Positions 2,133 through 9,234 of a stretch of 64,000 bases of DNA are shown in pieces (the stretch's first letter is position 1; the number at the start of each line of letters is the position of its first letter). Position numbers and translations under genes: made by a program. The stretch covers positions 1 through 64,000 of the forward strand of contig DAIDMK010000013.1 in NCBI GenBank assembly GCA_027449025.1, read 5' to 3'. The notes beneath the pieces are model-generated. The model saw only the letters and a list, made by a program, of their open reading frames with translations, did no database searches and had not been told where the DNA came from. Source of the DNA: Lutibacter sp. (GTDB lineage: Bacteria; Bacteroidota; Bacteroidia; Flavobacteriales; Flavobacteriaceae).

Positions 2133-5100
2133 ATGATAAAAGTAAACAGTATTGAAAAAAGGTTGTTAGCAGCAGTATTTTTGATTGCACTAATAACACT
2201 CATAGGTTGGTACTCCAACAACTTAAACTTAACAAGAGTTTCTCGCTTATTTTTACCTATGGCGCCCTTAACGGCCATTTTATTCATACTCATTGGATCC
2301 GCAAACTACCTATGGTTATTCCATAGGAAAAAAACTTGGCTTGTGCTTGCTAAAATAATCGTAATCTTAATACTAGTTATACAGACTGTTATAGCAATTG
2401 ATTTCTTTTATTTAAATTACACCCTTAATGTAGAGGCTCTATTAATAAATACCTCTGAATTGTTCAAAAATCAACCCATTGGTCGTATTTCTCAATGGTC
2501 TATTTTATTATTTAATTTTACCGCAATTTCTTTTTTAATAATAGATAAAAATCACAAGCTCTTTTACCGAAATGTATATGGTATATTAACTTTGATTATT
2601 TTTGGATCAAGTGCGTTCTTCCTTCTGTCATATATTGAGCGTTTTCCAATTTTTTTCAATGAAAGAGTTATCCCTATTTCATTGCTGGGAGCGTTTTGTT
2701 TTTGGTTATTGAGCTTGATTCAGCTAAAGATAATCAATTTTGAAATTTGGCCTTTTAAATTATTCAACGAAAAATCAACCTATAATATAATTGCAAAAAC
2801 TTTAATTCCTCTTGTTATTGGTTTGATCGTTTTACAAGAAATTATTGAAAATTACTTTATAGTTGATAAGAAGAGTCCCATAGTCTCCATGCTTTTTATG
2901 GTAATAGCAATATTCCTTATTATTTTTATGGTCTATAAAATAACTTCTATACTGGGAGATAGTCTGGATAAAACAGTTAAATCTCTGAAAATAAGCGAAC
3001 AAAAGTTCGAAAGTTTGTTTAATAATGCTACCATAGGCTTGTACCAATCAACCCCAGATGGTAAGGTATTGACCGCCAACAAAGCATTATTAGATATGTT
3101 GCAGTATAGTTCACTTGATGAACTGCTTAAAATTGATATTACTAAGGGAAGTTATGTAGATCATAATAAACGTAAAGAATTCAAGAGAAAATTAACTCAA
3201 TACAGTGAAATTACCAATTTCGAATCGCAATGGCGTTCAAAAAATGGCAATATCATTCATGTAAAAGAAGGAGCCCGAGCGGTTAAAGATAAAAATGGAC
3301 ATATCATTCGATATGATGGGGTAGTAGAGGATATAACAGAACTTAAAAAAATAGAAACAGTTCAAAACATCATCTTAAATATTGCAAATGCGTCTCAAAA
3401 TGAAGATAACCTAAATGTAATAATGCGTGTTGTTCAAAATGAACTAGGCAGAATTGTTGATGCTAAAAACTTTTATGTGGCAATTTATAATGACGAGAAT
3501 GATTCGATAAACAGAATCTTTTATCGAGACGAAAAAGATGAAATTATCAATTTTCCCGCAAGTAAAACGGCAACCGGGATGGTTATAAAACAAGGGAAAT
3601 CATATTTACTTAGAAAAGAAGATACCTCTAGGTTAGTAAAAGAAAATAAAATCAATGTTGTAGGTGAAATCTCAAAAGTTTGGTTAGGAGTGCCTTTAAT
3701 TGTGAAAGGAAAATCAATTGGTGCATTTGTTGTACAAAGTTATGAGAGTGAAAACGCCTATAATGAGAACGATAAAGAGGTATTAGAAATTATTTCACAT
3801 CAAATAAGCACTTCAATAGAACGTCAACAATCAGAAAAAATACTGCAAGATGTAGAACAGAAACAGCGTAATATTTTGGAAAAAAGCACGAATCTATTTT
3901 ACTCACACGACATTAATCATCAATTAAATTATATGAGTCCCCAAGTTAAGGATATTCTTGGCTATGAAGTGGAGGAGGCCTTAGTTAAATGGACTAAGTT
4001 AATTTCAGGTCATCCAATAAACGAACTAGGTTTTGGTAGTACCATGAGGGCTATAGAAACTGGCATTACGCAACCACCATATGAACTAGAACTTATCCGA
4101 AAGGATGGTCGTAAAATATGGGTAGAGGTAAGGGAAGCTCCTGTTGTTGAATATGGAAAGACGGTGGCTATTGTGGGTTCTTTAAATGATATTACAAAAC
4201 ATAAAAGAGACGTACAAATTCAAAATATTATTTTAAATATTGCTAATGCTTCACAAACATCTTTAAATTTAGGCAAGCTATTGCAGCTGATTCAAAAAGA
4301 ATTAGAGCGTATTGTAGATTCAAAAAACTTCTATGTAGCAATTTATAATGAGGAGGAGGATACTATTCACCTTCCTTATTTTCAGGATGAATATGATGAT
4401 ATAACTGATTTTCCTGCCAAAGGCTCTCTTACTGGCTTAGTAATTAAAGAAGGAAAATCGATGCTATTAAATAACGCTGATATAAATAAGTTGGTTGAAG
4501 AAAAGAATTTGGTACACACCGGTCCAGATTGTAAGGTATGGTTAGGTTTACCCCTTAAATCTAAAGAGAAAATTATTGGTGCCATTGTGGTTCAAAGTTA
4601 TGATGATGTAAATGCTTATAGTGAAAATGATATTGATATTCTTGAAATAATCGCATATCAAATAGGTATCTCTATAGAACGTAAACTTAATGAGGAAGAA
4701 CTTATTAAGGCTAAAGAAAAAGCTGAAGAAAATGAGGAACAATTAAAACGAATAGCAAACAATTTTGCTGATGGTATGATTTATCAGATTGCTATGATTG
4801 ATGAAAATCAAAGAAAATTCAATTATGTAAGTGATAGTGTAGTAAAGCTATATGGTTGTACCCCTGAACAAGTTAAAGAAAACTCCGACCTTATTTACAG
4901 TAAAGTACACCCTGATGATTTAGTTAATCTTATCAAAATAGAAAAAGAAGCATTAAAGAATTTTTCTACATTCAAATCCGAATGCAGGGTATTTAATCCT
5001 GACGGAAGTATTAGATGGTCCTATTTTGTATCTCAACCTCGATTAATAAATGAGATTGTTTGCTGGGATGGTATAGAAATTGACATAAGTGATCGAAAAA

Positions 5101-6263
5101 AAATTGAAAATGAATTGGTAATTTCCAAAGAAATAGCCGAAGAATCAGATCGTTTAAAATCTGCTTTCTTAGCCAATATGAGTCATGAAATAAGAACGCC
5201 AATGAATGCTATTATGGGCTTTTCTGAATTATTAAATGCCAACAATCTTTCTGAAGCTAAAAAAGAAAAATACCATGAAATTATTAGCAATAGTGGTAAA
5301 CGACTGATGAATATAGTTACAGACATAGTAGATATTTCTAAATTAGACTCTAATCAGTTAAACTTACACCTTGAATTAATTAATATAAATGAGCTCTTAG
5401 ATATTCTTTATAATCAATTCAATATAACTGCTAAAAATAAAAGTATTCAATTATCGTTGCATAAAGGATTGTCAATAGATGAGGGCAACATTAATACAGA
5501 TGAAACAAGGCTTTGCCAGGTTATCACAAATTTACTAGAAAATGCTTTAAAATTTACCCAATCAGGAAGTATAGAATTAGGGTATCAGTTAAAAGAAAAT
5601 GAATTATTGTTTTACGTTAAAGATACCGGTGTAGGAATCCGAAAAAAACACCACCAACTTATTTTTGATCGTTTCAGCCAATCTGATAATGAAATCTTAA
5701 AAGTAAAAGAAGGGGCGGGTTTGGGTCTTTCTATATCAAAAGGAATTATTGAACTATTTGGAGGTGTTATATGGGTAGAATCGGAACTTGGAAAAGGGTC
5801 AACCTTCTATTTTACCATCCCTTACAAAAATGGCGAGACAACAATGGAGCCTATTAATAAAAATAACCTTCGAGAAAACGTTCAAGAAATTGAAAGTAAC
5901 GCTACTTCAAAAACGATTTTAATTGCCGAAGACGAATATACTAATTATATGTTTTTAGAAGCTATATTAGAAGCGCTACCATTTAAGTTGGTACACGTTG
6001 AAAATGGGAAAGATGCGGTAGATTTCATGAATTCAAACGCTAAAATTGATTTAATTCTAATGGATATTAACATGCCTGTTATGAATGGTCTAGAAGCAAC
6101 AATTGCAATTAGAAAAATACATCCCAACATTCCTATCATCGCTGTTACAGCCTACGCTATGGCTACAGATCGTGAAAAGGCGATTGCACATGGCTGTACT
6201 GATTACCTTACCAAACCAGTATCTAAAAAAGTATTATTAGAAACCATCAATAAATATATCTGA
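2133..6263 (+). CDS. Membrane hybrid histidine kinase, PAS-GAF-PAS-GAF-PAS-HisKA-HATPase-REC
   Basis: A 1376-residue sensor. Residues 1-275 contain about seven or eight hydrophobic helices. Then follow PAS 1 (about 285-408), GAF 1 (410-565), PAS 2 (573-690), GAF 2 (694-850), PAS 3 (870-990), HisKA with FLANMSHEIRTPMN (His1018), an ATPase domain with the DTGVGI and GAGLGL boxes (1120-1235) and a receiver domain (1264-1374) with LILMDINMP (Asp1311) and the C-terminal TKPV lysine. The two GAF domains are clearly related to each other (shared NIILNIANASQ, KNFYVAIYN, VWLG.PL, VVQSY), so a GAF-containing module was duplicated. The ligand is unknown. No HPt or output regulator lies beside it, so the phosphate must go to a partner encoded elsewhere. 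Confidence 0.9.
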   Translation: MIKVNSIEKRLLAAVFLIALITLIGWYSNNLNLTRVSRLFLPMAPLTAILFILIGSANYLWLFHRKKTWLVLAKIIVILILVIQTVIAIDFFYLNYTLNVEALLINTSELFKNQPIGRISQWSILLFNFTAISFLIIDKNHKLFYRNVYGILTLIIFGSSAFFLLSYIERFPIFFNERVIPISLLGAFCFWLLSLIQLKIINFEIWPFKLFNEKSTYNIIAKTLIPLVIGLIVLQEIIENYFIVDKKSPIVSMLFMVIAIFLIIFMVYKITSILGDSLDKTVKSLKISEQKFESLFNNATIGLYQSTPDGKVLTANKALLDMLQYSSLDELLKIDITKGSYVDHNKRKEFKRKLTQYSEITNFESQWRSKNGNIIHVKEGARAVKDKNGHIIRYDGVVEDITELKKIETVQNIILNIANASQNEDNLNVIMRVVQNELGRIVDAKNFYVAIYNDENDSINRIFYRDEKDEIINFPASKTATGMVIKQGKSYLLRKEDTSRLVKENKINVVGEISKVWLGVPLIVKGKSIGAFVVQSYESENAYNENDKEVLEIISHQISTSIERQQSEKILQDVEQKQRNILEKSTNLFYSHDINHQLNYMSPQVKDILGYEVEEALVKWTKLISGHPINELGFGSTMRAIETGITQPPYELELIRKDGRKIWVEVREAPVVEYGKTVAIVGSLNDITKHKRDVQIQNIILNIANASQTSLNLGKLLQLIQKELERIVDSKNFYVAIYNEEEDTIHLPYFQDEYDDITDFPAKGSLTGLVIKEGKSMLLNNADINKLVEEKNLVHTGPDCKVWLGLPLKSKEKIIGAIVVQSYDDVNAYSENDIDILEIIAYQIGISIERKLNEEELIKAKEKAEENEEQLKRIANNFADGMIYQIAMIDENQRKFNYVSDSVVKLYGCTPEQVKENSDLIYSKVHPDDLVNLIKIEKEALKNFSTFKSECRVFNPDGSIRWSYFVSQPRLINEIVCWDGIEIDISDRKKIENELVISKEIAEESDRLKSAFLANMSHEIRTPMNAIMGFSELLNANNLSEAKKEKYHEIISNSGKRLMNIVTDIVDISKLDSNQLNLHLELININELLDILYNQFNITAKNKSIQLSLHKGLSIDEGNINTDETRLCQVITNLLENALKFTQSGSIELGYQLKENELLFYVKDTGVGIRKKHHQLIFDRFSQSDNEILKVKEGAGLGLSISKGIIELFGGVIWVESELGKGSTFYFTIPYKNGETTMEPINKNNLRENVQEIESNATSKTILIAEDEYTNYMFLEAILEALPFKLVHVENGKDAVDFMNSNAKIDLILMDINMPVMNGLEATIAIRKIHPNIPIIAVTAYAMATDREKAIAHGCTDYLTKPVSKKVLLETINKYI

Positions 6264-6431
6264 GAAATCACCAAAATATAGCTTACTGTTAATACAATGA
6301 TTTGAAACTAAAAAGTTTGTTTGCTAAATGTACTTAACTCCATGCGTTTCAATTAAACAAATTCTCTCTTGAAAATCCTTATAAAAAAGCAAAAAAATGA
6401 TTGCATTTTTACCAAAACCTTATCTCCTAAT

Positions 6432-6509
6432 TTAAGAAAAAATATGTTTAGTAATGGTTTCAAGTAACAAATCAAGTGATACAGGTTTTGAAAGATAATC
6501 AGTGCATCC
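6432..6509 (-). pseudogene. C-terminal remnant of a response-regulator receiver domain
   Basis: The minus strand from 6509 to the stop at 6432-6434 reads GCTDYLSKPVSLDLLLETIT followed by KHIFS. This is the last helix-strand-helix of a CheY-like domain, with the conserved KP pair. It closely matches the C-terminus of the large hybrid kinase just to the left (GCTDYLTKPVSKKVLLETIN). The codon immediately upstream in frame is TAA, and no further receiver sequence was recognised, so only about 25 codons survive. It is either the tail of a lost regulator downstream of the 6796-9064 operon or a copy of the hybrid-kinase end in inverted orientation. Confidence 0.6.
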
Positions 6510-6601
6510 TTAGATAGGAATAATTTAATTTATTGACTAAATGCAAATCAGAGTGGTTTAGATGTTTTACTGAATAACAAAACATTATTAAAAATAAAAG
6601 A

Positions 6602-6623
6602 GCCACTCAATTTCTATAATGGC
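6602..6623 (-). terminator. Terminator of the cobalamin/histidine kinase operon
   Basis: On the minus strand gccatt...gagtggc pairs over about 6 bp (one G-T wobble) and is followed by tctttt. The sequence agccactcaatttct at 6601-6615 is identical to the terminator beside tRNA-Asn at 16737-16751. It sits about 170 nt beyond the last gene of the operon. Confidence 0.5.
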
Positions 6624-6628
6624 TTTGT

Positions 6629-6658
6629 TTTGCTCCCCCTATTACTCAAAGTTGCAAC
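6629..6658. repeat. 30-nt dispersed repeat, copy A
   Basis: This segment matches 9205-9234 at 26 of 30 positions (common cores tttgctcc, ctattactc and agttgcaac). Both copies lie directly beside a terminator-like hairpin in the same orientation. The gctcc..cct end faintly resembles the 3' end of a tRNA gene on the minus strand, but no T-arm consensus remains. Confidence 0.5.
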
Positions 6659-6795
6659 TGGAATTAAATAATAAATCACGCAATTGTAAGAAGTATAAGT
6701 AGTTAGCTTTTTTAAGTTATTAAAAATCATACCTGTTAATTTATTTTTTGATAGTATAAAAAATGAAACGATTGAAAATATTTAAATTTAAAGGA

Positions 6796-7956
6796 TTAAT
6801 ATTTTGGTATGGTAAACTTAAATTCACTTCCTTTCCCCAACTTACTTTCTACCCAAATTTTCCCATGTTGTTTTTCAATAAATTCCTTACAAAGAATTAA
6901 TCCCAAGCCGGTTCCTTTTTCTTTTTCTGTTCCATCTTTTGATAATTCACAATCAATTGAAAAAAGGTTCTCCAAATATTCTGGTTCTATCCCTATTCCA
7001 GTATCAGAAATGATAAATAAAACCTCATTTTTTAAATTTTGGGTGATAATTTTTACAATTCCTCCTGGATGGGTAAATTTAAATGCATTGGTAACTAAGT
7101 TTATAATAACCGTGTGCAACATCTGTTTATCTGCTATAACAAACACTGAAGAGTCTATATCTAATTCCAAGGTAATATTTTTTGATAAGGCAATTGGCTC
7201 ACATAGCAATTGTACTTCTAAAGAAAGTTCCGCAAGATCTACTTTAACTAGATTTGGAGTTAATTTACCTGTTTGTAACCTTGACCATTCTAAAAGATTT
7301 TCTAAAAGAATAAAGGTGTTTTTAGATACATTATGAATGTTTTGCGCAAATTTTTGAATTTTTTCAACCGAATAATTGGGTGAATTAACGACCAACAAAT
7401 CACTAAATCCTAATATCGAATTAAAAGGATTTTTTAAATCATGGGCAATAATGGAAAAAAATTTATCTTTTGTTGCGTTTAATTCTTGCAATTTGCTATT
7501 AGCTTCATTGAGTTGCTCTAAGGTAATTTCCAACAACTGTTTCTCTTTTATCAAATTGCGTTGCAGCTTGCCAATCTCCTTATTTAAATGATGCATGTTT
7601 TTATTTTGATTAATAAGTTCCGCTGCATCTACACCGCCAAGAATTAAAAATTTCTCATTTTTCCGAAAAATTTTTACTGCGATACTTGAACTGATAGAGT
7701 AAAATTCTCCAATAGTTAAAAACCCATTAAAGATAAGAACATTTGAATTGTCTAAAGATGTTAATTTTTCAAAACTAGGGTTGATTAAGCTTTTTTGCGG
7801 GTTTTCGCTAAGGAGAAGTGACATAGCATCATTTGCAAATAACAATGTGCCATCTATGTTAAATAATGCAATGCATAATGAATGAGTGTCAAAAAGAGAA
7901 GCGATAAACTCATCCTTCCATTCTGCTAAAAGTCCAATTATCTTTTCTTTTTGCAT
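6796..7956 (-). CDS. Soluble PAS histidine kinase of the cobalamin-sensor operon
   Basis: A 386-residue cytoplasmic kinase without membrane segments. Residues about 20-110 look like a degenerate PAS domain (LFNIDGTLLFANDAM). Residues 115-162 form a heptad-rich coiled coil. The HisKA box is IIAHDLKNPFNSILGF (His172), and the ATPase domain shows NLVTNAFKFTHPGG, DTGIGI and GTGLGL. It starts 3 nt after the stop of the 153-residue gene and is the third gene of the operon. The HDLKNP form of the His box is typical of kinases that phosphorylate a separate regulator; none is encoded here apart from a receiver fragment further downstream. I infer that it is controlled by the cobalamin-binding protein encoded two genes upstream. 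Confidence 0.88.
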   Translation of the reverse strand: MQKEKIIGLLAEWKDEFIASLFDTHSLCIALFNIDGTLLFANDAMSLLLSENPQKSLINPSFEKLTSLDNSNVLIFNGFLTIGEFYSISSSIAVKIFRKNEKFLILGGVDAAELINQNKNMHHLNKEIGKLQRNLIKEKQLLEITLEQLNEANSKLQELNATKDKFFSIIAHDLKNPFNSILGFSDLLVVNSPNYSVEKIQKFAQNIHNVSKNTFILLENLLEWSRLQTGKLTPNLVKVDLAELSLEVQLLCEPIALSKNITLELDIDSSVFVIADKQMLHTVIINLVTNAFKFTHPGGIVKIITQNLKNEVLFIISDTGIGIEPEYLENLFSIDCELSKDGTEKEKGTGLGLILCKEFIEKQHGKIWVESKLGKGSEFKFTIPKY

Positions 7957-7959
7957 CTA

Positions 7960-8421
7960 TTAGTGAAATGTGTTGGTTGATTCTAGTTTTTCATCCGAAA
8001 CTTTAACAAAAACCGGAAGGTTAATTTGCATCCATTCATACAAAGGAAGCACTTCGGTATAAGTTTCGACAGATAATTGGTTCTTAAAAATTTGCATCCA
8101 AGTATTTAGCTGTGCCGCCCAATAATTGGTGGAAAAACCATGACTTCTATAAGCGCTAAAAACCCATAAAATGGTTTCTACCAAAACCTCAGCATTGTTA
8201 TATTTTAATATTGAAATAATAAACCGCACATGATTTGCATGATTATCCTGCATCATGGCACTATTGCCTTTCCCAACTAAATTTTCTAAATCACCACGTT
8301 CTATCATTAATTTATTCATCTCTGTAATGAGTTGTTCTGCATTTTGCGCATATTCATCAGCAGCTGTATTACTTACCTGCTTTAACTGATTTGCGGTTTG
8401 TAAGAGATGATTCTTATCCAT
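7960..8421 (-). CDS. Small helical conserved protein between B12-binding protein and kinase
   Basis: A 153-residue soluble protein predicted to be nearly all helical. Notable segments are DNHANHVRF (about 59-67), VFSAYRSHGFS (about 87-97) and LPLYEWMQINLP near the end; His, Trp and Tyr are frequent. No known domain was recognised with certainty. The start codon lies inside the end of the cobalamin-binding gene (8-nt overlap) and the kinase gene follows after 3 nt, so the three proteins are almost certainly co-translated. A role as an adaptor or second sensor linking the cobalamin protein to the kinase is a guess from context. The paired histidines could bind a cofactor or metal, but nothing proves this. 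Confidence 0.8.
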   Translation of the reverse strand: MDKNHLLQTANQLKQVSNTAADEYAQNAEQLITEMNKLMIERGDLENLVGKGNSAMMQDNHANHVRFIISILKYNNAEVLVETILWVFSAYRSHGFSTNYWAAQLNTWMQIFKNQLSVETYTEVLPLYEWMQINLPVFVKVSDEKLESTNTFH

Positions 8422-9064
8422 GATTATTTAGTTTTTTAATAAATAAATCGGTACTGTTTAAATCGGGTTTAAAGAAAACATTTTCATAATTTAATAATAC
8501 ATTTTGACCTCCATGAGAAAAAGCCTGACCTCCAACTAAAATTGGGGTTTTAGGAAATTCCTGACGAAATATGCGAATCATTTTTTCTAACTCTGGTAAA
8601 TGAAAATAAATACTCAAAGAAATAGCCATAAAATCAAGAGGAATTGTTTTTGCAAAGGATATAATATCAACTGTTGGTGTATTAGAACCCAAAAAATAAG
8701 AATTCCATCCGTTCATTTCGAACAAATCACTAATCATCTTTATTCCAATTTGATGATATTCATTTTCAACAGATGCCAATAAAACTGTTTTACCAATTTT
8801 TTGTTGCGCTATTATAGAAAAATAATGTTCATTTATAATTGCCTCAGAAATTGCTGAAGCCAAATGTTCTGTAGCAACACTAATTTTATTGTACTCCCAC
8901 AACTCCCCAACTTCATATAAAGATTTTTTTATGATGTTTTCATAAATATCTATTATAGAATAATTATTTTGAATTAACTTCTTTACAATGCTAGAACACA
9001 ATAAACGATTGCCTAACAATAATCCCTTAAGAAAATTTTGTTGTGTTTTATTGTTTAATTCCAT
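8414..9064 (-). CDS. CarH-like cobalamin-binding sensor protein without DNA-binding domain
   Basis: A 216-residue protein with the two-part cobalamin-binding architecture. The helical cap (about 1-85) contains Trp56 followed exactly 10 and 11 residues later by Glu66-His67 (WEYNKISVATEH). This is the W...EH spacing of the CarH/LitR light sensors, in which these residues flank the adenosyl group and the photo-trapped upper ligand. The Rossmann part (92-216) has EYHQIG (102-107; normal DxHxxG with Asp replaced by Glu, lower-ligand His104), ISLS (148-151) and VGG (177-179). The MerR DNA-binding domain of CarH is absent, and a histidine kinase is encoded in the same operon. A light or cobalamin input to a two-component system is the natural inference. 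Confidence 0.85.
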   Translation of the reverse strand: MELNNKTQQNFLKGLLLGNRLLCSSIVKKLIQNNYSIIDIYENIIKKSLYEVGELWEYNKISVATEHLASAISEAIINEHYFSIIAQQKIGKTVLLASVENEYHQIGIKMISDLFEMNGWNSYFLGSNTPTVDIISFAKTIPLDFMAISLSIYFHLPELEKMIRIFRQEFPKTPILVGGQAFSHGGQNVLLNYENVFFKPDLNSTDLFIKKLNNHG

Positions 9065-9177
9065 TTAATAGGGATAATCAATATAAATTATTGTTGTCTA
9101 CAAGATAAATAATTTTATTTACTTAACCTTACCACATTGATTATTTTCTTTTTTTTAAGATAATTAGAAACAAAAAA

Positions 9178-9199
9178 GCGTTACAATTGCTTGTAACGC
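9178..9199 (-). terminator. Terminator-like hairpin in divergent region
   Basis: The arms gcgttacaa/ttgtaacgc form a perfect 9-bp stem with a 4-nt loop, followed by six T on the minus strand. No minus-strand gene lies to its right. With the adjoining 30-nt repeat it looks like the tail of a lost transcription unit. Confidence 0.6.
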
Positions 9200-9204
9200 T
9201 GCTT

Positions 9205-9234
9205 TTTGCTCCTTCTATTACTCTGAGTTGCAAC
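9205..9234. repeat. 30-nt dispersed repeat, copy B
   Basis: Second copy of the 6629-6658 element (26 of 30 identical), again next to a terminator-like hairpin and in the same orientation. The two copies roughly flank the cobalamin/histidine-kinase operon. Confidence 0.5.

What the first reader, a model, noticed from the sequence alone, without database searches (positions are those of the whole stretch)
6796..9064. Three-gene cobalamin sensor and histidine kinase operon with CarH-type photoreceptor signature
The first protein keeps the exact Trp-N9-Glu-His cap spacing of CarH (W56, E66, H67), the lower-ligand His104 and the GG of the corrin site, but has no DNA-binding domain. The three genes are translationally coupled (8-nt overlap and 3-nt gap), ending in a soluble histidine kinase. 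CarH is known as an adenosylcobalamin light sensor that binds DNA directly; coupling the sensor to a phosphorelay through a small helical partner would be a different wiring. The 153-residue partner looks conserved in character but has no assigned function.
Basis: partly seen in the sequence, partly recalled or inferred. Interest (0 to 1): 0.75.

Follow-up and report, generated by a model that had tools for sequence, protein, structure and literature searches.

The report
Three-part B12 light-sensing kinase module
Three neighbouring genes encode a vitamin-B12-binding protein with the marks of a light sensor, a small globin-like partner and a signalling kinase; the same trio recurs in many bacterial phyla, and its globin seems to have lost the bile-pigment chromophore that its known relatives carry.

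Summary
In detail: minus-strand genes at 8414-9064, 7960-8421 and 6796-7956 encode a cobalamin-binding protein, a 153-aa helical protein and a histidine kinase, with an 8-nt overlap and a 3-nt gap. The B12 protein matches photocobilins (62-63 bits) better than CarH (37). The partner recurs in 82 loci; of 80 kept, 74 have a B12 gene and a kinase beside it, in three gene orders. The cap residues W, E and H are invariant where visible (74 of 74). Profile comparison aligns the partner with the biliverdin-binding globin of photocobilins (E 6e-4, probability only 28%, 0 of 500 decoys as high). I read it as a split photocobilin-like receptor wired to a kinase, a new variant of a known kind. The bilin Cys and Asp are replaced (Asp by Asn in 78 of 78), and 4 of 79 carrier genomes, not this one, encode PF01126 heme oxygenase: the bilin appears lost. 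Light sensing is inferred, not shown; no structure could be predicted.

The parts
8414..9064 (-). Cobalamin-binding protein, 216 aa: B12-binding_2 four-helix cap (11-77) and B12-binding Rossmann domain (93-185); W56, E66, H67, H104, G126xxxP130, G178G179
   Evidence: Pfam E 1.1e-11 and 6e-15; best solved relatives photocobilins 8j2y, 8j2w; residue counts
7960..8421 (-). 153-aa helical protein, most likely a stand-alone photocobilin-type globin that has lost the bilin Cys (M57) and Asp (N60)
   Evidence: 82 related loci; profile match to photocobilin globins; fused to a B12 domain in Ilyobacter; residue counts
6796..7956 (-). Histidine kinase, 386 aa: N-terminal region (PAS match below cut-off, E 0.22), likely coiled coil, HisKA (163-230), HATPase_c (276-385)
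   Evidence: Pfam; conserved H-, N- and G-boxes in an alignment of 69 kinases
6628..6658 (+). Direct repeat copy 1, downstream of the operon, behind a hairpin
   Evidence: two copies in the genome
9204..9234 (+). Direct repeat copy 2, upstream of the operon, behind a hairpin at 9177-9200

Best explanation
The operon encodes a three-protein sensor kinase: a split photocobilin-like receptor wired to a soluble histidine kinase. The B12 protein binds adenosylcobalamin with His104 as lower ligand and the adenosyl group under the Trp56/Glu66/His67 cap, forming a CarH/photocobilin-like dark dimer. The 153-aa globin docks on the corrin side of this dimer, as the globin domain does in photocobilins, but carries no biliverdin; it is the transducer that reads the state of the B12 protein and passes it to the N-terminal region and coiled coil of the kinase. 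Green light breaks the Co-C bond, the B12 protein rearranges, and kinase activity changes. Shown by calls: the genes, the cap and ligand residues, the recurring trio, a profile link to the photocobilin globin, the replaced bilin residues, the scarcity of PF01126 heme oxygenase, an adenosyltransferase gene in the genome. Inferred: adenosylcobalamin binding, globin fold, complex formation, globin as transducer, light as the signal, and the kinase response.
For: Trio in 74 of 80 loci, three gene orders. Cap W, E, H 74 of 74 visible and H104 74 of 75. PDB sequence ranking photocobilin > CtMerR > CarH > methionine synthase. Globin link: hhalign E 0.0083 with 9 photocobilin globins, 0 of 300 column permutations and 1 of 300 heptad-block shuffles as high; E 6e-4 over 82 gapless columns, 0 of 500 block shuffles as high, after adding 3 Myxococcota globins and the Ilyobacter one. 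The 9-sequence photocobilin globin set itself hits 8j2w at 2.1e-18 and phycobiliproteins at 2.9e-6. Natural fusion of this globin family (95.7 bits) to a B12 domain in Ilyobacter, followed by an overlapping GGDEF gene. Globin, B12 domain and kinase in one frame in a Myxococcota genome. Correlated divergence of the three proteins (r 0.55-0.66, 0 of 500 permutations as high). Cobalamin adenosyltransferase in the genome. No PF01126 heme oxygenase here; 4 of 79 carrier genomes have one.
Against: No fold could be tested: the structure job was lost and the tool then switched off. hhalign's own probabilities are low, 4.8% and 28.2%, and its E-values are for one comparison; HMMER profiles of the partner family find no photocobilin in the PDB, and its match to single photocobilin globins is no better than noise (scores of 0.5 bits and less). 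One block shuffle of 300 reached the score of the smaller comparison. The window protein has N101 where the published light signature has Gly (GxxH); 12 of 75 trio proteins have that Gly. Several carriers belong to lineages that I know as anaerobes (record titles; recalled, not tested), for which light may not be the signal. 6 of 80 loci show no B12 gene nearby (two of them start close to a contig end).
Confidence: 0.6

Rival explanations
1. A split photocobilin with a bilin after all: the globin binds biliverdin or another linear tetrapyrrole taken from outside or made by an untested route, and the module senses red as well as green light.
For: Profile link to photocobilin globins; a Cys is not always present, 5 of 12 photocobilin globins here have Thr, and PMC10979010 gives a dissociation constant for biliverdin in SasPcob (part read).
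Against: The position of the pyrrole-binding Asp is Asn in 78 of 78 (role of the Asp as told in PMC10151467); PF01126 heme oxygenase in 4 of 79 carrier genomes and not in this one; HutW model matched only below cut-off here. IsdG- and HugZ-type enzymes were not searched.
Confidence: 0.15
2. The B12 protein senses adenosylcobalamin level, oxygen or the redox state of cobalt rather than light; globin and kinase relay that.
For: Occurrence in lineages that I know as anaerobes (record titles; habit recalled). Beside the trio the one neighbour cluster seen in more than four loci holds signalling proteins (21 loci), and nothing recognisably tied to light recurred (kinases left out beforehand; only two members of that cluster were looked at).
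Against: Invariant W/E/H cap, which in CarH and photocobilins surrounds the adenosyl group that light removes (PMC11796333, PMC10979010).
Confidence: 0.2
3. The 153-aa protein is not a globin but an unrelated helical adaptor that took over the place of the globin.
For: No Pfam family above cut-off and no PDB hit by sequence; hhalign probabilities of 4.8% and 28.2%.
Against: Gapless register match with 500 decoys all lower; same place in the Ilyobacter fusion as the globin in Azospirillum photocobilins.
Confidence: 0.12

Closest known systems
Photocobilins (SasPcob 8j2w/8j2x, AbDPcob 8j2y; PMC10979010: parts 1-2 of 8, section 9 and passages read)
   Same: CarH-like B12 domain with Trp, Glu-His cap and lower-ligand His, paired with a globin-like domain, alone or with an output domain
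   Different: Those described are fusions with biliverdin; here the globin is a separate gene without the bilin Cys and Asp, PF01126 heme oxygenase is scarce among carriers, and the neighbour output is a histidine kinase
BBAG-2 globins with B12-binding proteins in Myxococcales (PMC10151467: sections 8 and 9 and passages read)
   Same: Separate globin gene beside a B12-binding protein gene
   Different: BBAG-2 binds biliverdin, has an RGMC motif, and goes with bilin reductase and heme oxygenase genes; 'histidine kinase' does not occur in the main text
Photoglobins (Schneider et al. 2022; paper not held; known here through citing papers and recall)
   Same: Non-heme globins tied to B12-binding light-sensor domains and signalling domains
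   Different: A CXQD motif is reported for photoglobins (PMC10151467); here M57-x-D59-N60. I could not check whether that paper includes this trio
CarH (5c8a, 5c8d, 3whp)
   Same: Cap residues W, E, H, lower-ligand His
   Different: No MerR DNA-binding domain here; weaker sequence match than to photocobilins

Membership tests
CarH-type B12 photoreceptor domain | Cap Trp and Glu-His | tested here: met
   W56, E66, H67; 74 of 74 visible in the trio
CarH-type B12 photoreceptor domain | Lower-ligand His in the B12 domain | tested here: met
   H104; 74 of 75
CarH-type B12 photoreceptor domain | Full published signature GxxW, EH, GxxH, GxxxP (PMC11796333) | tested here: not met
   GxxW, EH and GxxxP met; GxxH is NxxH in the window; Gly in 12 of 75
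CarH-type B12 photoreceptor domain | Adenosylcobalamin photolysis by green light | not testable with these tools
   needs purified protein
CarH repressor (full protein) | MerR DNA-binding domain | tested here: not met
   only B12 domains in Pfam; CarH model NF052513 47.6 bits against cut-off 400
Photocobilin | B12 domain paired with a globin-like domain | tested here: inconclusive
   Profile match E 6e-4, probability 28.2%, 0 of 500 decoys as high; Ilyobacter fusion; no structure
Photocobilin | Bilin-site Cys/Thr and Asp as in photocobilin globins | tested here: not met
   Cys position Met in 71 of 78, never Cys or Thr; Asp position Asn in 78 of 78; in 12 photocobilin globins Cys 7, Thr 5, Asp 11
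Photocobilin | Binds biliverdin | not testable with these tools
   needs purified protein
Photocobilin | Both domains in one chain | tested here: not met
   Separate genes in the window; a fusion of this globin family was met only in Ilyobacter
Two-component histidine kinase | HisKA and HATPase_c with H-, N- and G-boxes | tested here: met

The most novel reading that the evidence does not exclude
A widespread, so far unnamed class of light-controlled kinases, largely in anaerobic lineages, in which cobalamin is the only chromophore and a former bilin-binding globin has become a chromophore-free protein transducer between the B12 dimer and a kinase; in the window's genus it is carried as a repeat-bracketed accessory cassette.
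Probability: 0.4. Interest if true: 0.78.

Novelty: new variant of a known kind. Interest (0 to 1): 0.62.

Why it matters
It would extend B12 photobiology from DNA binding and fused enzymes to a three-protein two-component system found in at least 11 phyla (labels of 29 sampled loci), with heme oxygenase, and so home-made biliverdin, scarce among carriers. It gives a natural test of what the globin in photocobilins does besides holding a bilin, and a set of small separate proteins that could serve as green-light tools. Only 12 of 75 trio B12 proteins have the Gly of the published GxxH signature, so a strict search with that signature would miss the others.

Tried and rejected
Searching the 153-aa protein against Pfam, NCBIfam and PDB gave nothing above cut-off, nor did its profiles against the PDB; 78 members against Pfam gave 24 families matched by one or two members each, best E 0.004. 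Single photocobilin proteins score 0.5 bits or less against its profile. A fused kinase-B12 frame in Geofilum (L016) was set aside as a probable frameshift, because the end of the kinase part turns into low-complexity sequence. A response regulator that always accompanies the trio was looked for and not found: 25 of 80 loci have a receiver-containing gene on the same strand within 3 kb, most of them kinases. A profile of the kinase N-terminal region did not hit the Ilyobacter GGDEF protein, so a shared input domain is not claimed. Of six Myxococcota hits with the globin profile, in 140 genomes, three were dropped: L099 and L102 as unlikely frames, L101 as partial. L096 (Nonomuraea) was fetched but not used. 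That His of the NHxNH motif binds heme was set aside because neither His is invariant (62 and 61 of 78). The HutW model (TIGR04107) matched only below cut-off here. Circularly shifted versions of the photocobilin alignment kept scores of up to 22.26; most leave the matched core whole, so I do not count them as decoys. Tree of 41 B12 proteins: 29 of 30 sampled trio proteins (window included; 75 were at hand) lie in one starred branch (99/100) with a long-branch MerR protein inside; L021 falls with photocobilins; the label 'trio' needs 3 changes; 18 of 38 inner forks are open and the bootstrap had not settled.

Rows dropped: L036, L047 and L077 (partial) from the 78-row globin alignment; L074 from the heme-oxygenase count, being of the same assembly as L065 by its record name; L009 and L016 from the divergence test, which used 67 rows, the window included.

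Full report
Three minus-strand genes at 8414-9064, 7960-8421 and 6796-7956 encode proteins of 216, 153 and 386 residues; the first two overlap by 8 nt and the last two are 3 nt apart. The first is a cobalamin-binding protein (PF02607 1.1e-11, PF02310 6e-15), the third a histidine kinase (HisKA 1.4e-8, HATPase_c 6.4e-24), and the second has no family above cut-off.

The B12 protein is closer in sequence to photocobilins than to CarH. Against PDB chains the best matches are 8j2y (63.4 bits) and 8j2w/8j2x (62.4), then CtMerR 8jbs (53.4), CarH chains (36-37), and methionine synthases and one other chain (30 and less). Photocobilins, which I read about in PMC10979010 (parts 1-2 of 8, section 9 and passages), are B12 domains with a five-helix globin-like domain that binds biliverdin, found alone or with an enzyme domain.

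The 153-aa protein is one part of a widespread trio. A scan of one genome per species found 82 loci encoding a relative and kept 80. In 74 of 80 a B12 gene and a kinase gene lie within 2.5 kb on the same strand; the order is B12-partner-kinase in 47 (in two of these, L049 and L076, another kinase stands between B12 gene and partner), B12-kinase-partner in 20 and partner-B12-kinase in 7; four loci show neither, two only a kinase. That the order changes while the company stays speaks for joint function. The labels of 29 sampled loci name 11 phyla: Bacteroidota, Ignavibacteriota, Chlorobiota, Thermodesulfobacteriota, Myxococcota, Nitrospirota, Planctomycetota, Spirochaetota, Acidobacteriota, Fibrobacterota and Pseudomonadota; most records are metagenome bins, so single labels may be wrong. 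The three proteins diverge together over 67 rows (r 0.62, 0.55 and 0.66; 0 of 500 permutations as high), as expected of genes that travel together. By single-sequence search the partner is rare near the window: 1 of 100 genomes of its family and 5 of 395 of its phylum, the window's own counted in both.

In the 74 B12 proteins beside the partner plus the window, the residues that surround the adenosyl group are fixed: W, E and H 74 of 74 each (one protein is cut by a contig end), lower-ligand His 74 of 75, GG 75 of 75. These proteins were chosen only by lying beside the partner and matching a four-sequence B12 profile. The published light signature (PMC11796333; parts 1-4 of 7 read) asks for GxxW, EH, GxxH and GxxxP; the window protein meets three and has Asn for the Gly of GxxH, which 12 of 75 keep. 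The own genome has one other match to the B12 cap domain, on an 879-residue frame that I take for methionine synthase, and a cobalamin adenosyltransferase.

What the partner is: sequence searches alone fail, and single photocobilins score no better than noise against its profile. I collected 9 photocobilin globins from plasmids of Azospirillum, Skermanella and Streptomyces; the set hits the globin part of 8j2w at 2.1e-18 and phycobiliproteins at 2.9e-6. Profile against profile, 78 partner sequences and these 9 give E 0.0083 over 103 columns with a probability of only 4.8%; 0 of 300 column permutations but 1 of 300 heptad-block shuffles score as high. With three Myxococcota globins (from six hits in 140 genomes) and the Ilyobacter one added, E is 6e-4, probability 28.2%, over 82 gapless columns; the score of 28.6 stands against decoys of mean 13.3, sd 2.5, maximum 23.8 (0 of 500), and the helical half of the B12 protein and the kinase coiled coil score 13.5 and 16.2. 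In Ilyobacter polytropus a member of the partner family (95.7 bits) is fused in front of a B12 domain, the same layout as in Azospirillum photocobilins, and is followed by an overlapping GGDEF gene. In one Myxococcota genome globin, B12 domain and kinase lie in one reading frame, and in Azospirillum a fused photocobilin is followed by a kinase. I take the partner to be a separate-gene photocobilin globin. The structure test that would settle this could not be run.

What changed: in the alignment the bilin Cys falls on M57 (Met in 71 of 78, never Cys) and the Asp of the CXRD/CXED motif on N60 (Asn in 78 of 78), against Cys 7, Thr 5 and Asp 11 of 12 in the photocobilin globins. PF01126 heme oxygenase, which makes biliverdin, was not found in the window's genome (completeness given as 100) and was found in 1 of 50 and 3 of 29 carrier genomes; their completeness is not told, so single absences mean little, but 4 of 79 is low. 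I did not run the same search on genomes with ordinary photocobilins. In PMC10151467 (sections 8, 9 and passages) the related separate globins of Myxococcales go with heme oxygenase and two tested BBAG-2 proteins bound biliverdin. So the trio's globin has probably given up the bilin and serves as a protein transducer. N60, N63, F67, T83, W86, Y91, F96 and Y100 are invariant in 78 of 78 and mark the surface or pocket to test.

How it would work: dark dimer of the B12 protein with adenosylcobalamin, globin docked on the corrin side, kinase held in one state through its N-terminal region and coiled coil; light breaks the Co-C bond, the dimer rearranges and the kinase switches. The photochemistry and docking are carried over from CarH and photocobilins; binding, light response and kinase response are inferences. 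A cobalamin-, oxygen- or redox-sensing role is the main rival.

Literature: the terms photocobilin and photoglobin occur in 3 and 5 papers of the library. Searches for bilin, globin, B12-binding and histidine kinase together, and for cobalamin, photoreceptor, histidine kinase, CarH and standalone together, found none; three more listed 1, 2 and 9 papers, none of which by title and start of abstract treats a B12-globin-kinase trio (listings only, except PMC10151467). The paper that defined photoglobins (Schneider et al. 2022) is not held; from recall its abstract speaks of gene neighbourhoods with B12 domains and signalling domains, so it may include part of this. I therefore call it a new variant of a known kind.

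Surroundings: a 31-nt direct repeat stands on both sides of the operon (6628-6658, 9204-9234) and, allowing two mismatches, nowhere else in the genome. Of 149 genomes searched 9 have it, the own included, all among the 38 of the same genus. In G739, G741 and G709 two copies in the same orientation lie 7 to 14 kb apart around other genes, by my reading of the sequences an efflux system in two of them and transporters with two-component genes in the third; G728 has two copies on separate contigs, and four genomes have one copy. That suggests that the operon is an accessory cassette in this genus; the agent is unknown.

Noticed in passing
window 6628-6658 and 9204-9234 (+): A 31-nt direct repeat behind a hairpin brackets the operon; two copies in the genome; 9 of 149 genomes have it, own included, all same genus; in three others same-orientation pairs stand around different genes; no exact match in viral contigs and no Rfam match. 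May bound mobile cassettes.
   Followed up: partly
window 6264-6795 (-): Remnant of the last 25 residues of a receiver domain (GCTDYLSKPVS...) downstream of the kinase on the same strand, with a stop directly upstream; resembles the end of the receiver in the hybrid kinase at 2133-6263.
   Followed up: no
window 2133-6263 (+): 1376-aa hybrid kinase with PAS, GAF, HisKA, HATPase_c and receiver domains, convergent with the operon; in several relatives (for example L008, L020, L027, L035, L044, L045) a large kinase lies directly upstream of the B12 gene on the same strand.
   Followed up: partly
L086 2470-3591 and 3572-4513: Ilyobacter polytropus plasmid pILYOP01: globin-B12 fusion followed by an overlapping GGDEF gene, possibly a c-di-GMP version of the module.
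   Followed up: partly
L025, L031, L035, L038, L040, L041, L044, L045, L053, L061: Two or more kinase frames in a row behind the B12-globin pair.
   Followed up: no
L093 2438-3517: Streptomyces sp. SGAir0924 plasmid: photocobilin-like gene near gas vesicle genes.
   Followed up: no
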